50,112 nucleotides of DNA from a bacterium (lineage in GTDB: Bacteria > Cyanobacteriota > Vampirovibrionia > Gastranaerophilales > Gastranaerophilaceae). Under the pieces are notes generated by a model, which had not been told where the DNA came from, ran no database searches, and saw nothing but the letters and a program-made list of their open reading frames with translations. Made by a program: the position numbers and the translations under genes. Below, one piece after another: positions 23,975 to 38,042 of this stretch. Location: NCBI GenBank assembly GCA_017541465.1, contig JAFXYZ010000037.1, positions 1-50,112 of the forward strand, in the 5' to 3' direction. Every line of letters begins with the position of its first letter. Within the stretch, counting starts at the first letter, position 1.

Positions 23975-24718
23975 TTATCTTTTGTTCATATCCATTATAA
24001 CTTTAAACAGGAATAAAGGCAAAGTGGGAAATATCCGCTTAAACCTTTTTGGCTCTTTTATTGTCCGGTATAACCATTCGAGCCAGAGTTTTCTGAAAAT
24101 CAACGGTGCACGCTCAATCCGTCCTGCCCATACGTCAAAACTTCCGCCGACACCAATGAAAATACTTTCCTTTAAAACTTCTCTTGCGCGCTTTATGAAA
24201 AATTCCTGCTTGGGTGACCCCAAAGCAACCAGTACAAGAGAAGGCTCTGAGGATGCAAGTGCGCCAATTATTTCCCCTTCTTCTTCAGAGGTAAAAAATC
24301 CGTTTCTTGAATAGGAAATTTTCAGATTTTCATATTTTTTTGTTAAATTTGAAACCGCATCCTCTAAAATATCCTGTTTAGTTCCTATCAGGGCGACATT
24401 TAAACCGTTTTTGGCGCAATATTCAATTAAAGCGGAAGAAAGCTCAACCCCGGGAATTGTCGGCTGGTTAATCCCCTTCAGTTTTAAAGCTAATTTAACC
24501 CCGACACCATCAGGAACAACAAATTCCGCGTCAAAAATAATTTCTTTAAAATCACTGTTTTTCTGGGCGGTTTCAAACATCTCAGGGTTAATGGTTACCA
24601 CCTGAGCGCCTTTTTTCGATTCTATATAACCGATAATAGCTTCAACACAAGAGCTGAAGTCAAAAAGATTGACATCAATCCCAAGCACTTTAGCGGTTTT
24701 GAAGTTTTTATCTACCAT
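23975..24718 (-). CDS. WecG/TagA/CpsF-family glycosyltransferase (GT26)
   Basis: Likely transfers an N-acetylhexosamine-type sugar (ManNAc/ManNAcA in characterised members) onto a lipid-linked GlcNAc during surface glycan assembly at the inner membrane. The 247 residues carry the family hallmarks TINPEMFETAQKN, VVPDGVGVKLALKL (catalytic Asp), PGVELS and LVALGSPKQEFFI. The exact sugar cannot be read from sequence. It overlaps the LOG gene by 7 bp. Confidence 0.88.
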   Translation of the reverse strand: MVDKNFKTAKVLGIDVNLFDFSSCVEAIIGYIESKKGAQVVTINPEMFETAQKNSDFKEIIFDAEFVVPDGVGVKLALKLKGINQPTIPGVELSSALIEYCAKNGLNVALIGTKQDILEDAVSNLTKKYENLKISYSRNGFFTSEEEGEIIGALASSEPSLVLVALGSPKQEFFIKRAREVLKESIFIGVGGSFDVWAGRIERAPLIFRKLWLEWLYRTIKEPKRFKRIFPTLPLFLFKVIMDMNKR

Positions 24719-25281
24719 TTATACACGTATTCCCTGACTTTGTATGATTTTAAATAGTCAAAAATATCATCTATGGTATCTGCCATATAATAAACATCTC
24801 TGAAGGTGTCTTTGGCAAAGCCTTCCGAATAATATTTTTCAAAAACCAAGTTAAGCTCATTATAAAACCCGTCAAAGTTAGCGAAAATAATGGGTTTTGT
24901 ATGAGAAGAGAGTTGTTTTGCAACGATTATTTCAGAAACCTCTTCGAGTGTTCCGAAGCCACCGGGGAGTGCTAAGAAAATATCAGAAAGTTCTTCCATC
25001 TTTGCTTTTCGCTCTCTCATATCCTTTGTAACGATGACGTTAGCAAGTTTCGGGTGTCCGATATTTTCTTTTTCTATGCGCTCAGGAATAACTCCGATAA
25101 CTTCACCGCCGTTTTTTAAGACGTTATCGGCAACAACGCCCATCATACCGCAGATTGTTCCGCCATAGACCATATCATAACCGTTTTTTGAAATTGCCTG
25201 ACCGATTTTTTCCGCAAAATTATAGTATTTTTGCTCCAGAGAACTGCTTGCGCTGCAATAAACACATATCCTTTTCTTCAT
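24712..25281 (-). CDS. LOG-family nucleotide phosphoribohydrolase
   Basis: Cytosolic Rossmann-fold protein of the TIGR00730 (LOG/YvdD) family, which hydrolyses nucleoside 5'-monophosphates to base and ribose 5-phosphate. The 189 residues contain YGGTICGMMG (about 39-48), the MRERKAKM helix (88-95) and the diagnostic PGGFGTLEE at 106-114. It heads the minus-strand cluster that continues through the glycosyltransferase, transketolase and ftsEX. Confidence 0.92.
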   Translation of the reverse strand: MKKRICVYCSASSSLEQKYYNFAEKIGQAISKNGYDMVYGGTICGMMGVVADNVLKNGGEVIGVIPERIEKENIGHPKLANVIVTKDMRERKAKMEELSDIFLALPGGFGTLEEVSEIIVAKQLSSHTKPIIFANFDGFYNELNLVFEKYYSEGFAKDTFRDVYYMADTIDDIFDYLKSYKVREYVYKW

Positions 25282-25379: not shown

Positions 25380-26348
25380 ATGAACATAAATCTGCCCAGT
25401 TTTAAAGGCTACGATGCCGTTCCACTAAAAAGTCTTTATATAGAAGCGAACAATAGCGGACCTATCGAAAAGGAAATGGAAGCTATCGGGAAAAAGGAAA
25501 ATATAGAGATAAGATACTACCCGAGCCCTAATATGTGGGCGCAGGACGATAAGACAATTATTGAAAAGAACGGCAAACCCTTTATCGTTGCAGGCGAAGA
25601 TATTGAACCCACCGTACTGAAGTCATTAAAACAAATTTACGGAATAGAAGGAGACTGGAATTACGGCTTTTTAACGGGCGGAAATACTTTTATAGGCAAA
25701 TACCCGAACGGTGAGAAATGGCTTATTACAGGCGAAGAGCCTGACGATAATTTTAAAAATTATATTTCGGAATGCTACCAAATCAAGAAAGAAAATATTC
25801 ACGCAATTCCAAAGCCCGATTTCCATATTGATATGGGGATAAGACCGATAAGCTATCCCGATGTTCTGGTTAATGATCCGAAAATTGCCGAAGAAAACCT
25901 CAAAAAACTCGATGACGGCTCAAGAGGGTACAGGGAATTTAAGAAAGCCTTCGACAGAATAAGACATTTTTACGAAACAAATTATGCTTCCGCGGATAAA
26001 ATCTGCGATGAACTGAAAAAACTCGGGTTTAACCCTATTCGTATCGGCGGGGTTTATTACAGCGGAATAAACTTTATGAATTCAATAGTTAATAAGCACG
26101 ATGACGGCACAATGTCTTATATCACAAATGCTTCGGCATGCAGAACAAAGATTTATACCGAACTTCAGAAGATTTTTGAGGAGGAGCTGAAGGAAAAAGC
26201 TCCAAATATAAAGACAACTCATTTTGTTAAAGGTTCATATACCGTTTTGCCTCATACAAAGAGCTATATGACGGATGCTATTGAGAATAAAAGCGGAGGC
26301 ATCCATTGTATGACAATGGAAGAGCCCGATTTTGAAAGGTGGGCATAA
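25380..26348 (+). CDS. Pentein-fold deiminase-like protein, paralogue A
   Basis: A 322-residue protein whose motif order matches guanidino-group-modifying penteins (agmatine deiminase, bacterial peptidylarginine deiminase). W53-A-Q-D-D holds an Asp in the substrate-Asp position, TGGN is at 99-102, the HxD pair is His149/Asp151 in FHIDMG, and the nucleophile candidate is Cys310 in GGIHCMT near the C-terminus. No signal peptide; it opens with FKGYDAVPLK, an N-terminal motif I recall from many proteins of this lineage. The substrate is unknown. Overall sequence is far from AguA, so family membership is inference. It lies 3 bp upstream of its paralogue, and they share a terminator. Confidence 0.72.
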   Translation: MNINLPSFKGYDAVPLKSLYIEANNSGPIEKEMEAIGKKENIEIRYYPSPNMWAQDDKTIIEKNGKPFIVAGEDIEPTVLKSLKQIYGIEGDWNYGFLTGGNTFIGKYPNGEKWLITGEEPDDNFKNYISECYQIKKENIHAIPKPDFHIDMGIRPISYPDVLVNDPKIAEENLKKLDDGSRGYREFKKAFDRIRHFYETNYASADKICDELKKLGFNPIRIGGVYYSGINFMNSIVNKHDDGTMSYITNASACRTKIYTELQKIFEEELKEKAPNIKTTHFVKGSYTVLPHTKSYMTDAIENKSGGIHCMTMEEPDFERWA

Positions 26349-26351
26349 GTT

Positions 26352-27323
26352 ATGACGATTAATAATATAAGTTTTAAAGGCTATGATGCAGTACCGTTAA
26401 AGAGTATTTACATTGACTATGCACACGCACTTCCGATTCAGAATGAACTTCGCAGGATTTGCAAAAAAGAGGGGATAAATTTAAGAAAAGTCTATGACGG
26501 AGACAAATGGGCTCAGGATAACAAAGCAATAGTAGAAAAGAACGGAAAACCTTTTCTTGTAGGAGGTAATCTTCCTGAGGACAGTCTTTCAATTATGGAG
26601 GGAAGATATGATATTAAAGGACAGTGGGATTATTCCTTTTTAACGGGAGGAAACACCTTTATCGGCAAATATCCGAACGGTGAAAAATGGCTTATTTCGG
26701 GCGAAAAAATAAGAGATGAAAGAAGAGCGGATTTATCAAAATGTTACGGGATAAAACCTGAGAATATGTTTCAGATACCAAAACCCGATTTTCATATTGA
26801 TTTAGGGATAAGACCGATAGGTTACCCCGATATTCTGGTTAATGATTATAATATTGCCGAGAAAAATCTTGAAAAGCTAAATGACGGCTCAAAAGAGTTT
26901 GAAGATTTAATGAGTTCGTTTAAGGCATATAAAGAAGGGGCTGAGAGAACTTACGCATCGCCCGGTGAAATCTGCGATGAACTGAAAAAACTCGGGTTTA
27001 ACCCTATCAGAATCGGGGGTGTTTATTATGACGGAATAAACTTTATGAACGCAATAGTTAATAAACACCAAGATGGTACAATGACTTATATTTCAAATTC
27101 CTCAGAGTGCAAAAATCATATTTATACAAAACTGCAAAAGGTTTTTGAAAAGGAACTAAAAGAAAAAGCACCGATGATAACGAATTGTTGTTTTGTCAAA
27201 GGTGAAGTGCCCCGCCATGCCCGATTTGTAGAAAAAAGTTATATGCTTGACTCTCTCAAACACTACCACGGCGGAATACACTGTATGACACTCGAAGAAC
27301 CTGATTTTGAAAAGTGGGGATAA
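26352..27323 (+). CDS. Pentein-fold deiminase-like protein, paralogue B
   Basis: Tandem paralogue of the preceding gene (323 residues), with the same framework: FKGYDAVPLKS at 9-19, WAQDN at 53-57, TGGN 98-101, His148/Asp150 in FHIDLG, and Cys311 in GGIHCMT. Long stretches around the active site (FLTGGNTFIGKYPNGEKWL, KKLGFNPIRIGGVYY) are identical. The N-terminal 90 residues and the 180-205 and 275-300 segments have diverged, which suggests a shared reaction on different substrates. No own promoter is apparent, so it is probably co-transcribed. Confidence 0.72.
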   Translation: MTINNISFKGYDAVPLKSIYIDYAHALPIQNELRRICKKEGINLRKVYDGDKWAQDNKAIVEKNGKPFLVGGNLPEDSLSIMEGRYDIKGQWDYSFLTGGNTFIGKYPNGEKWLISGEKIRDERRADLSKCYGIKPENMFQIPKPDFHIDLGIRPIGYPDILVNDYNIAEKNLEKLNDGSKEFEDLMSSFKAYKEGAERTYASPGEICDELKKLGFNPIRIGGVYYDGINFMNAIVNKHQDGTMTYISNSSECKNHIYTKLQKVFEKELKEKAPMITNCCFVKGEVPRHARFVEKSYMLDSLKHYHGGIHCMTLEEPDFEKWG

Positions 27324-27325
27324 CA

Positions 27326-27359
27326 AAAAACTGCGTGAGGAAAATCTCACGCAGTTTTT
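27326..27359 (+). terminator. Strong terminator after the pentein pair
   Basis: AAAAACTGCGTGAG pairs perfectly with CTCACGCAGTTTTT around a 6-base loop and runs into a T-rich tract. It starts two bases after the stop codon. The core AACTGCGT/ACGCAGTT also occurs in the hppA terminator. Confidence 0.92.
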
Positions 27360-27420: not shown

Positions 27421-29019
27421 TTATGACATAGCAACCGCTTTAGGTCCTGCATTGACAATTTCCTGAGGCATATTAGGATATTTAGCCTTAAAGTTGTCAG
27501 CGAACATCTGAGCAAGTTTATTAGCCTGCTGGTCATAAGCGCTCTTATCAGCCCACATTCCTCTTGCATCAAGAAATTCAGCGGGAACATCAGGGCATGA
27601 TGTCGGATAATCAACATTAAATACATCGTGATGTTTAAATTCGATGCTGTCAAATGAGCCGTTGAGTGCTGCCGTTACCATAGCTCTTGTGTAAGAGAGT
27701 TTCATTCTCTTTGCGCCCATTGCTGCACTGCCGCCTGCCCAGCCTGTGTTGACCAAGTAAACCTTAGTTCCGTACTGGTCAAGTTTTTCACCGAGCATTT
27801 TTGCATAGATGCTTGCATCCATAGGCATAAAGGGTTCGCCGAAGAGAGTTGAGAAGGTCGGCTGAGGTTCCGTTACTCCTCTTTCGGTTCCTGCAAGTTT
27901 AGAAGTGAAGCCTGTTACGAAGTGGTACATTGCTGCGTTCTTGTCAAGTCTTGAAATCGGAGGAAGAACACCGAACGCATCAGCGGTTAAGAAGATAACG
28001 ACCTTCGGAATACCTCCCATTGAAGGAATCTGAGCATTATCGATGTAGTCAATCGGGTATCCTACACGTGTGTTTTCGGTTAAAGAGCCGTCATTAAAAT
28101 CAAATTCTCTTGTTTCGTCGTTCATAATAACGTTTTCAACAAGTGAACCGAATTTGATAGCGTTATAAATTTCGGGCTCATGTTCTTTTGAAAGGTTGAT
28201 ACATTTTGCATAGCAGCCGCCTTCAAAGTTGAAAACACCGTCAGGTGACCAGCCGTGCTCGTCATCACCGATTAATTTTCTGTTAGGATCAGCGGAAAGA
28301 GTGGTTTTACCTGTTCCCGAAAGTCCGAAGAATACGGCTGTTTCGTGTGTCTGAGGATCCATATTAGCGCTGCAGTGCATAGGAAGTACATTTTTCTTTG
28401 TCATTATGTAGTTCATTGTAGCGAAAACTGATTTTTTGATTTCGCCCGAATACTGCGAACCTGCAATGATAATCATGTGCGCTTCATAGTCGATAGCGAT
28501 ACAAGCTTCAGAGTTTACACCGTCAACCTCGGGATCACATTTGAACCCGGGAGCACAAAGAATTGTATAATCAGCTTCGCCGTAGGAAGCAAGTTCTTCA
28601 GCCGTAGGTCTGATTAAGAGCTGATGAATGAACATGTTTTGTGAAGCGAGTTCATTTATAACTCTGAATTTTTGGGTATATTTTTTATCCGCACCCGCAA
28701 AACCGTCGAAGATGAAAACTTCTTTGTTCTGGAGATATGCAGCAATTTTGCCTTTTATTGAGTTGAAGGCTTCTCTTGAAATAGGTCTGTTTACTTTTCC
28801 CCATGCAATTTCATCGTGAACTGAAGGAGTATCAACGATAAATTTATCCTTGGGTGAACGACCTGTATATTTGCCTGTAGTAACAACAAGAGCGCCCGTT
28901 AATGATAATTTACCTTCTCCTCTTCTGAGTGCCGCTTCAGTCAACTGAGCAGGCGTAAGGTTACGGTAAACTGCTTTTGGCCCGATTATTCCGAGCTTTT
29001 CGATTCCGTATGTTTCCAT
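27421..29019 (-). CDS. pckA: ATP-dependent phosphoenolpyruvate carboxykinase
   Basis: Interconverts oxaloacetate and PEP with ATP/ADP and Mn2+/Mg2+. In gut anaerobes it often runs towards oxaloacetate to make ATP. The 532-residue protein has the phosphate-binding GLSGTGKTTLSADPNR, IGDDEHGW, the metal/substrate residues around MHCSAN and the RGV-containing adenine-binding region. Start ATG 29019 is fixed by AAGGAGA five bases upstream; a reading from 29046 would ignore it. The leader is about 140 bases long, with hairpins and two GCAAATTTGC palindromes around the -10 box. Confidence 0.97.
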   Translation of the reverse strand: METYGIEKLGIIGPKAVYRNLTPAQLTEAALRRGEGKLSLTGALVVTTGKYTGRSPKDKFIVDTPSVHDEIAWGKVNRPISREAFNSIKGKIAAYLQNKEVFIFDGFAGADKKYTQKFRVINELASQNMFIHQLLIRPTAEELASYGEADYTILCAPGFKCDPEVDGVNSEACIAIDYEAHMIIIAGSQYSGEIKKSVFATMNYIMTKKNVLPMHCSANMDPQTHETAVFFGLSGTGKTTLSADPNRKLIGDDEHGWSPDGVFNFEGGCYAKCINLSKEHEPEIYNAIKFGSLVENVIMNDETREFDFNDGSLTENTRVGYPIDYIDNAQIPSMGGIPKVVIFLTADAFGVLPPISRLDKNAAMYHFVTGFTSKLAGTERGVTEPQPTFSTLFGEPFMPMDASIYAKMLGEKLDQYGTKVYLVNTGWAGGSAAMGAKRMKLSYTRAMVTAALNGSFDSIEFKHHDVFNVDYPTSCPDVPAEFLDARGMWADKSAYDQQANKLAQMFADNFKAKYPNMPQEIVNAGPKAVAMS

Positions 29020-29149
29020 GTTTTTCTCCTTATAAAATTTGAACAAATTTAGCCAGTGTTTAATTATTTATCTATCTAATCTAGTGTCGCCTTATGCCGC
29101 CTCGTCATCCGAGCCGTCATAAAGGCTCACCTTTTCTCACGCGCCACTC
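29020..29149 (-). other. pckA 5' leader, possibly structured
   Basis: If the TATAAT at 29166-29171 is used, the pckA transcript carries about 140 untranslated bases. A GAGCC/GGCTC hairpin lies at 29111-29128, flanked by GC-rich, partly repeating segments (GGATGACGAGGCGGCATAAGGCGAC on the RNA strand, given here only as a pattern of GAC/GGC-rich blocks). It does not match any riboswitch consensus I know. It could be a regulatory leader or a small inserted repeat. Confidence 0.35.
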
Positions 29150-35225: not shown

Positions 35226-38042
35226 TTACGATAAGTTTAAAGCCTTTAAGGTATTTGCGCTTCCGACTATCGAAGTTACCGGGGCAGAAGAAAAGACATA
35301 GTTTGCGCATGACTTCAAATCTTCGGCACTTACTTTATCAATAGCGTCAAGCATTAATTTTAACCGTTCTCTGCCGTAAAAATCGTTCTTTGATTCTGAT
35401 AAAAGCACTGTTTTATCCACTCTTGTCTCAATTCCTTCAAGAATTGCGTTTTTGAGGACAACCTTCGCCTGTTTGAGCTCATCCTCACTGACAGCCGTAG
35501 TTTTGAGCGCATTAACATGTTTATTAAAGCCTTCTAAAGATTTTGTGACATTTTCGTGTGAACTCTTGTCGTCATTTACGTTATCGGTTGTAGTTTTGAT
35601 ATATAAGTTTATAAATCCCGTATTCCCGACTTTTTCATATTGTGAACCTACGGCATAAGCGAGTTTTTGCTTTTCTCTTAAATCTTCAAACAGTCTTGAG
35701 GACATGCCGCCGCCCAAAAGAGTGTTCAAAAGCTGAATTTTCGCGTCATCTTCAATGTTTCCGCTTGTCTTAAACTTGTATCCCTGAGCAATACTCGTCT
35801 GGGCATTGTCCTCTTCAAAAACTACCGTCCTGGCTTCCCCTGAAGGGGTAAAAGTGTCGTCAAGAGTAATGTTAAACGGCTTAGAAGGGGAAATTGTATT
35901 CATCAGATTATAGGCAAAAATATTCTCGATTAACGGATTTTTGTCAGTCGGCGCACTCAGAGTTGAAGTAGCACAAGTGTTTTGAAACATTCTTGAATAT
36001 AATTCCTTTATGCGGTCAAGCGAAAGGTTATCTAGCTCAGAGATTACCTCCCGGTTTGTCTGTCCTATATTTAACCCCGGGAAAAGCTCCTTCATAAGTT
36101 TTGCATCGGGGCTCTGGTGTTCGGTCGAAAGAATATTTTTCGCTCTTGTTATTGATTTCTTCAGATCCTCCTGAGTAAACCTCGGATAGCGCATTATTTC
36201 GTTTATTGCGTTAAACGAATTTTGCATCTGGTTTTCGGGACATCTTGAAAAATAAGTCAGAGAGGAGGGTGTGAGGTTAAACTTCAGCTCGACATCGGCT
36301 TTTTCAAGCTGTGCGCTCATCGTTTGCTCATCTCTGTATAAAGAACCCGAATTGAGCAGGTCGTTTAAGACCAAAAGCTCGGCAGAGGACATATCCTTCA
36401 TCATCGGGAAGGTGTATTTTGTTGTGAATATTGCTTTATCGGTATTTACGGAGGGATTTACCGCTACCTGAATATTGTTTGGAAGGGTATATTCCCTTAC
36501 CTTTTCAAACATCGTTTTATTTTGGGCGGGTATTCCTTTAAAAGAAATTATATTCTTATTATAGTTATTTTTAATTGTCTCTTCGCTTGCACCTTTCGGA
36601 TGAACCAGGCAAAGAGAGGCTTTATTGAGGTCAAAGTATTTTGAATAGGCAGACATTAAATCATTAAACGAAATTGAATTGATTAATGCCTTATAATCCT
36701 GAGAGAGTGCCTTATTATTATACCTCAAACCCTCAAGAATAAAACCTGACAAGCCTGAAACCATTTCATTAGAGTCCTGAAGCCCGTTAAACACTTTTCT
36801 CTTCGCAATTTCAATTTCTTCGGTTGAAGGCGGATTATAAGCAAAATTTGAGATTTCCCTGTAGATTTCAGAGAGAATTTCCTCTGATTTTTCCTCGGGA
36901 GTGTTGAGGTTGAAAGAAAGGCACATTCTGTCATCATCAAGGTTTCCGACCTCTTCAAACTCAAAATTACCGCTGACGTGGTGTTTATCGAGCGCTTTTG
37001 TCAGACGTGCATTTTTAGAACCTTCAAACATGCTGACAAGAAGGGTAACAGCGAGCCTGTCTTTTAAATTTGCGTTCTCAGGTCCTGCAAACCCCAGAGA
37101 AATTGAAGTTCCTATGGCTTTATCTCTTAGAATATCCGTTCTTTTTGCGGAATCAAGCGGTTTTAATATTTCATGATTTTTCTCTGAGGGTTTTTGAGGG
37201 TTTTGTTTTGTATAGTATTTTGAAACAAGAGAAAGAGTTTTGTCCCTGTCTATGTCGCCGATAATTACCGTTGTTGCGTTATTGGGGGTGTAGTATGTGT
37301 TATAATAATTGATTAAATCATCTCTCGTAAGCGATTTTATGTTATCAATTCTGCCTGCAACCAAATCAGTTGAGGTTGAATTAATCTGAAATAAGTCCTT
37401 TATCATCTGACAATGGGCATAATTTGAGGCATCATCATCGTACATGTTTATCTCTGAACAGACAATTTCCTTCTCTTTTTCCATCTGCTCTTCAGGAAAA
37501 GTGGGGAATTGCACCTGCTCTGAGTTCAGTTTGATCAGCTCTTCAAGATTTTCCACTCCTAAAGCACTCTGAGCGTAATATGAAGTAACGTTATTTGCGG
37601 TATATGCGTTTGTGTAAGCGCCGATTTTGGCAAGTCGTTGGTTGTATTCCCTCGGTTTTAGACGCTCTGAGCCGTTAAAGAGGTTGTGCTCTATAAAATG
37701 GCTTATCCCTCTTTGGTTATCGGGTTCGTTGAAGCCCCCTGTTTTAAACAAGGTCTGCACCATCAAAGGTCCTTCTTTTTTGACAAGGACTACCTTTTGA
37801 CCGTTTGAGAGCTTAAATACCTCGGCTTTGTTTTCAACCCCGGGTATGGAAAATTCCGAAATTTTCGTATAAGCAACAGGGGTTCTTGCGTTTATCTGGC
37901 TGAAAGCGGAGTGAGTAGAAGGAAGAGAGTCCTTTTGGGCATAAGGAGGAAATGGCGAAACAGTATTTTGCACCTGTGTTTCAGGCTCAACATTACTGCC
38001 AAAATTGACATTATACAACTTTACAGGACTTACATTACTCAT
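35226..38042 (-). CDS. M16-family zinc metallopeptidase, two-domain form
   Basis: A 938-residue peptidase with both halves of the M16 clam-shell in one chain. The active half has the inverted zinc motif HFIEH (His115, Glu118, His119) and the distal ligand Glu197 in EIVCSEINM. The C-terminal half has the GGGMSSRLFEDLREKQKLAYAVGS stretch with the conserved Arg/Tyr. No signal peptide; the N-terminus contains NVNFGS, another lineage-type opening. Members degrade peptides or process precursors; its substrate is unknown. A TATAGT box ends 12 bases before the ATG and no ribosome-binding site is visible. Confidence 0.9.
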   Translation of the reverse strand: MSNVSPVKLYNVNFGSNVEPETQVQNTVSPFPPYAQKDSLPSTHSAFSQINARTPVAYTKISEFSIPGVENKAEVFKLSNGQKVVLVKKEGPLMVQTLFKTGGFNEPDNQRGISHFIEHNLFNGSERLKPREYNQRLAKIGAYTNAYTANNVTSYYAQSALGVENLEELIKLNSEQVQFPTFPEEQMEKEKEIVCSEINMYDDDASNYAHCQMIKDLFQINSTSTDLVAGRIDNIKSLTRDDLINYYNTYYTPNNATTVIIGDIDRDKTLSLVSKYYTKQNPQKPSEKNHEILKPLDSAKRTDILRDKAIGTSISLGFAGPENANLKDRLAVTLLVSMFEGSKNARLTKALDKHHVSGNFEFEEVGNLDDDRMCLSFNLNTPEEKSEEILSEIYREISNFAYNPPSTEEIEIAKRKVFNGLQDSNEMVSGLSGFILEGLRYNNKALSQDYKALINSISFNDLMSAYSKYFDLNKASLCLVHPKGASEETIKNNYNKNIISFKGIPAQNKTMFEKVREYTLPNNIQVAVNPSVNTDKAIFTTKYTFPMMKDMSSAELLVLNDLLNSGSLYRDEQTMSAQLEKADVELKFNLTPSSLTYFSRCPENQMQNSFNAINEIMRYPRFTQEDLKKSITRAKNILSTEHQSPDAKLMKELFPGLNIGQTNREVISELDNLSLDRIKELYSRMFQNTCATSTLSAPTDKNPLIENIFAYNLMNTISPSKPFNITLDDTFTPSGEARTVVFEEDNAQTSIAQGYKFKTSGNIEDDAKIQLLNTLLGGGMSSRLFEDLREKQKLAYAVGSQYEKVGNTGFINLYIKTTTDNVNDDKSSHENVTKSLEGFNKHVNALKTTAVSEDELKQAKVVLKNAILEGIETRVDKTVLLSESKNDFYGRERLKLMLDAIDKVSAEDLKSCANYVFSSAPVTSIVGSANTLKALNLS

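What the first reader, a model, noticed from the sequence alone, without database searches (positions are those of the whole stretch)
25380..27323. Tandem pentein-fold deiminase-like paralogues with a lineage-specific N-terminus
Both proteins keep an Asp after WAQ, TGGN, an HxD pair and a C-terminal GGIHC cysteine, the active-site order of agmatine/peptidylarginine deiminases, yet are otherwise unlike named members. They share a FKGYDAVPLK head and one terminator, with strong identity near the active site and divergence in peripheral loops. This suggests a duplicated enzyme acting on two guanidino substrates or protein targets in gut bacteria, possibly a new deiminase group.
Basis: partly seen in the sequence, partly recalled or inferred. 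Interest (0 to 1): 0.72.

Follow-up and report, generated by a model that had tools for sequence, protein, structure and literature searches.

The report
Unnamed gut-bacterial arginine-deiminase-like enzyme pair
Two neighbouring genes in a gut relative of cyanobacteria encode a previously unnamed family of enzymes that has the shape and complete active site of the arginine-modifying deiminases but fits none of the known sequence families, so their substrate, possibly arginine in proteins, is an open and testable question.

Summary
ORFs 25380-26348 and 26352-27323 (+) are 60% identical tandem paralogues, 3 bp apart, before one strong terminator, in a Gastranaerophilales genome with no other copy. 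A family alignment gave a confident AlphaFold2 model (pLDDT 90) that is a pentein propeller; best solved matches are the catalytic domain of human PAD4 (Z 23, 281 residues), then PPAD and agmatine deiminases (Z 20-21). All mechanistic residues of PAD4/PPAD/AguA have counterparts (W53, D56, H149, D151, N231, C310), nearly all conserved in 43 members. Yet no Pfam or NCBIfam model reaches its cut-off. The peptide-binding Arg pair, the agmatine-binding Asp and the calcium ligands of PADs are not conserved; the genome lacks AguA, ADI and PAD, and shows no AguB or carbamate kinase. So: a separate, fast-evolving, accessory pentein family, most likely Cys-type guanidine deiminases with an unknown, probably non-catabolic substrate. 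The 'lineage-specific head' is two things: F-x-G-Y is invariant here, but the (I/V)-(S/N)-F-(K/T/G)-(G/S) part recurs at N-termini of unrelated Gastranaerophilales proteins, suggesting a shared leader. New variant of a known kind; moderate interest.

The parts
25380..26348 (+). W1: pentein-fold guanidine-modifying enzyme, 322 aa, all catalytic residues present (W53, D56, H149, D151, N231, C310)
26352..27323 (+). W2: tandem paralogue, 323 aa, 60% identical, all catalytic motifs present
25380..25415 (+). N-terminal head of W1, MNINLPSFKGYD; FxGY invariant in the family, FKG part shared with N-termini of unrelated proteins
26352..26387 (+). N-terminal head of W2, MTINNISFKGYD
27326..27359 (+). 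intrinsic-terminator-like hairpin (15 pairs) shared by both genes
24712..25281 (-). divergent neighbour, LOG-type (lysine decarboxylase-like) protein by reading of the sequence; no sign that it belongs to the system
   Evidence: named by reading, not searched
27421..29022 (-). convergent neighbour, ATP-type phosphoenolpyruvate carboxykinase by reading of the sequence; no sign that it belongs to the system (start taken at the Met of METYG)
   Evidence: named by reading, not searched

Best explanation
W1 and W2 belong to a separate, so far unnamed pentein family of Gastranaerophilales and are most likely cysteine-dependent guanidine hydrolases (deiminases). By analogy with PAD4, PPAD and AguA: D56 and D151 clamp a guanidinium group, C310 attacks its central carbon with help from N231, H149 protonates the leaving ammonia, and water then hydrolyses the thiouronium intermediate to the ureido (citrulline-type) product. 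Shown: genes, duplication, family, predicted fold, residue equivalence, conservation. Inferred: that the enzyme is active, that it is a hydrolase rather than a transferase, and that the substrate is not a catabolic one (arginine or agmatine for energy) but some other guanidino compound, possibly an arginine side chain in a protein or peptide. W1 and W2 are probably both active, having kept every catalytic residue. The N-terminal FKG stretch is inferred to be a lineage-wide leader shared with unrelated proteins, the following Y-D-A-x-P-L-K leading into the first strand of the enzyme itself.
For: AlphaFold2 pLDDT 89.9, pTM 0.90. Foldseek top hits are all penteins, E down to 4e-10; VIA Z 23.0 to PAD4 3b1t over 281 residues, 20.9 to PPAD, 20.8 to C. 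jejuni AguA. In one search model residue 319 pairs with AguA residue 324, which would put C310 on the known nucleophile C315 (6b2w) if ungapped. Profile-profile alignments set W53/D56 on W-x-R-D and H149/D151 on HID of AguA-type proteins, and HxD, N231-x-x-N234 and GGIHC on the PAD equivalents; equivalences among PAD4, PPAD and AgDI including Asn588/297/306 are from PMC4487231, chemistry from PMC3525017. D56, D151, N231 and GGN 43/43, C310 42/43, H149 40/43. No ArcC in 60 genomes of the order; no AguB at E 1e-30 in the own genome; no PF04371, PF03068, PF02274 in the own genome. No conserved operon, and the gene evolves faster than syntenic neighbours, e.g. 37.5% against 59-66% identity, as expected of an accessory factor rather than core catabolism.
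Against: No activity evidence at all; deiminase rather than amidinotransferase rests on resemblance. Three members have H149 replaced by Asp and one of these also lost the Cys, so some members are probably inactive. Profile similarity to PAD and AguA is weak (hhalign probability 44% and 88%). Model coordinates could not be inspected, so spatial clustering of the residues was not measured directly. No signal peptide was seen by eye, so access to host proteins is unproven.
Confidence: 0.6

Rival explanations
1. Agmatine deiminase (AguA) or arginine deiminase feeding polyamine synthesis or ATP formation.
For: C-terminal HCxxxExP resembles HCxTxQxP of AguA, HxDxxxR is shared with AguA-type proteins, and the best weak pentein signal in Pfam is PF04371 in 5 of 31 members, E 0.014.
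Against: The Asp four residues before the catalytic His, which holds the agmatine amine in plant AIH (Asp220/His224, PMC6447857), is Gln in 37 and Lys in 4 of 43 here. No AguB at E 1e-30 and no carbamate kinase in the own genome. PF04371 cut-off not reached.
Confidence: 0.12
2. Protein arginine deiminase that citrullinates host or bacterial proteins: a PAD-like enzyme without the N-terminal domains.
For: Closest solved folds are PAD catalytic domains; W-x-Q-D rather than the W-x-R-D of AguA-type proteins; accessory, duplicated and fast-evolving in gut bacteria.
Against: The Arg pair that binds the peptide backbone (PAD4 R372/R374, PPAD R152/R154) has no conserved counterpart: 9 of 43 members, W1 included, have no Arg at all between D56 and GGN. 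PAD calcium ligands next to the motif (Glu351, Glu353) are not kept (positions 57 and 59). No secretion signal recognised. PF03068 not reached.
Confidence: 0.25
3. Amidinotransferase that moves the amidino group to an amine rather than to water.
For: The top PDB hit of the family profile is the amidinotransferase SxtG, though only at E 0.2; a cyanobacterial SxtG-like protein was picked up at E 5.5e-5.
Against: Structure matches rank deiminases first, and W-x-x-D plus HCxxxExP follow the deiminase pattern.
Confidence: 0.1
4. Catalytically dead pentein used for binding a guanidino ligand or a partner.
For: One tandem partner elsewhere (L075:5669-6991) has lost Cys and His, two other members have His to Asp.
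Against: W1 and W2 keep every catalytic residue, as do 40 of 43 members, with purifying selection.
Confidence: 0.07

Closest known systems
Vertebrate/cyanobacterial peptidylarginine deiminases, catalytic domain PF03068 (human PAD4)
   Same: Fold (Z 23 over 281 residues); Cys/His/Asn/Asp/Asp set; N-x-x-N motif; W-x-Q-D (PAD4 part from own knowledge; W347 and D350, residue 349)
   Different: No PAD_N or PAD_M domains, calcium ligands and peptide-binding Arg pair not conserved, no Pfam match, about 14% identity
Agmatine deiminase / Porphyromonas-type PAD family PF04371 (AguA, PPAD)
   Same: Fold (Z 20-21), catalytic residues, HxDxxxR, HCxxx(E/Q)xP ending, similar single-domain length
   Different: W-x-Q-D in place of W-x-R-D, agmatine-binding Asp absent, PPAD Arg152/Arg154 not conserved, Pfam cut-off not reached by any of 31 members
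Amidinotransferases of the pentein superfamily (SxtG, AGAT)
   Same: HxD-x4-P-L-x5-L-V-N stretch aligns with SxtG
   Different: Similarity below significance (E 0.2), different N-terminal motifs
Long unnamed relatives in the phylum: 550-597 aa forms with an EF-hand-like N-terminal part in Gastranaerophilales (L074, L076) and 453-1076 aa forms elsewhere (L068-L070)
   Same: Same sequence family by profile (probability 97-99.8%)
   Different: No FxGYDA head, His before the catalytic Cys replaced by Asp or Gly, other N-terminal modules

Membership tests
Pentein superfamily (guanidine-modifying enzymes) | five-bladed pentein propeller | tested here: met
   model pLDDT 89.9; top solved matches all penteins, VIA Z up to 23
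Pentein superfamily (guanidine-modifying enzymes) | Cys and His plus two acidic guanidine-binding residues | tested here: met
   C310, H149, D56, D151 aligned by profiles to PAD and AguA, conserved in 40-43 of 43
PF04371 agmatine deiminase / PPAD | Pfam match above gathering score | tested here: not met
   no match for W1, only CagA_N noise for W2; best of 31 members E 0.014; none in own genome
Agmatine deiminase (activity) | Asp four residues before catalytic His, binding the agmatine amine | tested here: not met
   position 145 is Q 37, K 4, E 1, Y 1 of 43; role from PMC6447857
PPAD | Arg152/Arg154 pair binding the peptide C-terminus | tested here: not met
   no conserved Arg between D56 and GGN, none at all in W1; the exact structural equivalents were not superposed
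PF03068 PAD | Pfam match above gathering score | tested here: not met
   W1 and W2 give no PAD match; not among the 25 families shown for the 31 members; no match in own genome
PF03068 PAD | calcium ligands next to the W-x-Q-D motif (Glu351, Glu353 of PAD4) | tested here: not met
   position 57 acidic in 5 of 43, position 59 acidic in none
Arginine deiminase / amidinotransferase PF02274 | Pfam match above gathering score | tested here: not met
Deiminase (any) | release of ammonia and a ureido product from a guanidino substrate | not testable with these tools
   needs an enzyme assay

The most novel reading that the evidence does not exclude
A new, calcium-independent class of protein or peptide arginine deiminases made by gut Gastranaerophilales, carrying a previously undescribed N-terminal (I/V)-(S/N)-F-(K/T/G)-(G/S) leader that also marks unrelated proteins (an M16 peptidase, a phosphoesterase, very large proteins) for a common destination.
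Probability: 0.15. Interest if true: 0.75.

Novelty: new variant of a known kind. Interest (0 to 1): 0.47.

Why it matters
Citrullination by microbes is discussed as a trigger of autoimmunity, yet known bacterial protein deiminases are few. Here is a whole pentein family, present in about 30% of the sampled genomes of a common gut order, with full catalytic residues and substrate-side residues unlike PAD, PPAD or AguA. Its substrate is directly testable. The recurring FKG leader would point to an unknown sorting or processing route in this little-cultured lineage.

Tried and rejected
Phage and plasmid collections gave no match, so a phage or plasmid origin was set aside. PADLOC and PHROGs gave nothing convincing, so a known defence system was set aside. 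A search for conserved neighbours gave only synteny among close relatives, no functional partner. A second copy of the head elsewhere in the own genome was not found with the exact DNA pattern or a 22-aa query; only the looser five-residue pattern showed the wider leader. CagA_N, CoA_CoA_reduc and the pre-mRNA-splicing-protein hits in the PDB are chance-level. Amidinotransferase structures are not in the rows shown, which excludes nothing.

Full report
Observation. The two ORFs lie where stated, 322 and 323 codons, on the + strand. They are 60% identical over their whole length, E 6e-140, and the second ATG starts 3 bp after the first stop, so they are probably co-transcribed. One 15-pair hairpin with a T-rich tail follows the second gene at 27326-27359. 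The own genome (2.12 Mb, 74 contigs, 99.7% complete) holds these two copies and no other. The nearest named records are Candidatus Gastranaerophilales genomes, and the family is found in 81 of 272 genomes of the order at E 1e-5. Beyond the order only a few long relatives in the same phylum were found. Phages and plasmids gave no match.

Fold. Thirty-one members were aligned; 22 columns are invariant although mean column identity is 27%. The AlphaFold2 model of W1 from this alignment has mean pLDDT 89.9 and pTM 0.90, with only residues 1-7 below 50. Foldseek against the PDB returns penteins at the top, E down to 4e-10. VIA-align 2 gives Z 23.0 (3.1 A, 281 residues, 14% identity) to human PAD4, 20.9 to PPAD and 20.8 to C. 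jejuni agmatine deiminase. The first part of the finding's own refutation test (a fold that is not a pentein) was therefore run, and it did not refute the finding.

Active site. Equivalent positions in PAD4/PPAD/AgDI are given in PMC4487231: C645/C351/C357, H471/H236/H218, N588/N297/N306, D473/D238/D220, D350/D130/D96. Profile alignment of this family with AguA-type proteins of the phylum pairs W53-x-x-D56 with W-x-R-D, GGN with GGS, and H149-x-D151 with HID; alignment with cyanobacterial PADs pairs H149-x-D151 with HID, N231-x-x-N234 with N-x-x-N, and GGIHC with GxIHC. Plant AIH also has a Trp three residues before its guanidine-binding residue (Trp91, residue 94) and a His-x-Asp/Cys triad. 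Over 43 members D56, Q55, GGN, D151, R155, N231 and N234 are invariant, C310 is 42/43, H149 40/43, W53 40/43. Chemistry by analogy: Cys attack, His proton transfer, thiouronium intermediate, hydrolysis (PMC3525017). The 3D clustering itself could not be measured because model coordinates are not exposed; it is inferred from fold plus alignment.

Family membership. No Pfam or NCBIfam model reaches its cut-off for W1 or W2, and none of the pentein models does for the other members. hhalign against alignments built here gives probability 88% to AguA-type and 44% to PAD-type proteins, but 97-99.8% to the long relatives L068, L070 and L074/L076. The group is therefore its own branch. It mixes features: W-x-Q-D and overall fold extent as in PAD, HxDxxxR and HCxxxExP as in AguA. 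Substrate-side features of both known classes are missing: no conserved Arg pair before GGN (no Arg at all there in W1), Q or K in place of the agmatine-binding Asp, no calcium ligands next to the motif.

Pathway evidence. The own genome has no PF04371, PF03068 or PF02274 protein, no AguB at E 1e-30 (none of 117 genomes of the order passes the curated cut-off) and no carbamate kinase, which is also absent from all 60 sampled genomes of the order. So the standard downstream steps for agmatine or arginine catabolism appear to be missing. No conserved partner gene is seen around the 28 family genes examined. In syntenic comparisons the family gene changes faster than the genes adjacent on its conserved side: 37.5% against 59-66%, 61% against 77-85%, 89% against 92-98% (in the last comparison more distant genes on the other side are less alike than the family gene). 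These traits fit an accessory function better than central metabolism. That is inference.

Duplication. A tree of 47 sequences puts W2 with L032 from another species (96/76) and W1 outside, so the duplication probably predates that split; support is moderate. A tandem pair arose independently elsewhere (L075), and there one copy has lost both Cys and His. In the window both copies keep all catalytic residues, and dN 0.31 against dS 1.8 shows constraint. Whether they differ in substrate cannot be told.

The head. F8, G10 and Y11 are invariant in 43 of 43. But in about 0.8 Mb of the own genome the pattern [ILVA][NSTPAQH]F[KRTGSQ][GSA] is 3 times more frequent at N-terminal positions 3-25 than beyond residue 60 (P 0.0015; the pattern was shaped on this set, and the family is counted; without it 2.8 times, P 0.004). 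In independent stretches of other Gastranaerophilales genomes, with family members removed, it is 5 times more frequent (8 of 7360 positions against 17 of 78409; P 0.0008). Proteins with it start more often with M(x)(I/V)-polar (7/11 and 6/8 against about 15%), the reversed motif shows no comparable excess, and control loci from cyanobacteria show none (that control is small). Carriers are unrelated: an M16 peptidase at 35226-38042 of the window, a calcineurin-like phosphoesterase (L085), proteins of 1382 and 1916 aa without Pfam domains. A shared leader is the simplest reading; its role is unknown. Long relatives have other N-terminal modules in place of the head.

Literature. Cyanobacterial PADs and their transfer to animals are described in PMC8826395; that text does not mention Melainabacteria or Gastranaerophilales. 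A survey of microbiota PAD homologues does not either (PMC11121387). The only paper in the library that holds both Melainabacteria and citrullination is unrelated. The library is open-access only.

Verdict. Observation confirmed. New variant of a known kind, interest 0.47.

Noticed in passing
window 35226-38042 (-); L085:15557-17239; L093:1664-7573; L097:9605-13756; L094:12276-12710; L116:14193-14942; L172:3941-5380; L174:4012-5076: Unrelated Gastranaerophilales proteins (M16 peptidase, phosphoesterase, very large proteins of unknown function) share an N-terminal M-x-(I/V)...(I/V/L)-(S/N)-F-(K/T/G)-(G/S/A) stretch, enriched 3 to 5 times at N-termini.
   Followed up: partly
L075:5669-6991 (-) beside L075:4356-5732 (-): Independent tandem pair in another species in which one copy has Ser at the catalytic Cys and Asp at the catalytic His, a probable dead copy beside an intact one.
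   Followed up: partly
L074:5295-6947 (-), L076:4192-5985 (+): Longer members (550-597 aa) carry an EF-hand-like N-terminal part (DNGDG...) and IDC in place of IHC at the C-terminus; no Pfam match above cut-off.
   Followed up: partly
L145-L148: PF03068 PAD-type proteins, mostly of one cyanobacterial family and with an N-terminal hydrophobic stretch, end in SATN where other PADs have HCGTN or HCATN, so the catalytic Cys seems to be replaced by Ser.
   Followed up: no
L016:1465-1950 (+): Family member with an internal deletion that joins the QPDF before HxD to the PDF near the C-terminus, apparently between two short repeats.
   Followed up: no
L155-L157: AguA-type (PF04371) proteins in a large-genome family of the phylum begin with a lipoprotein-like signal (L-x-A-C-Q-T), suggesting surface-anchored deiminases.
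   Followed up: no
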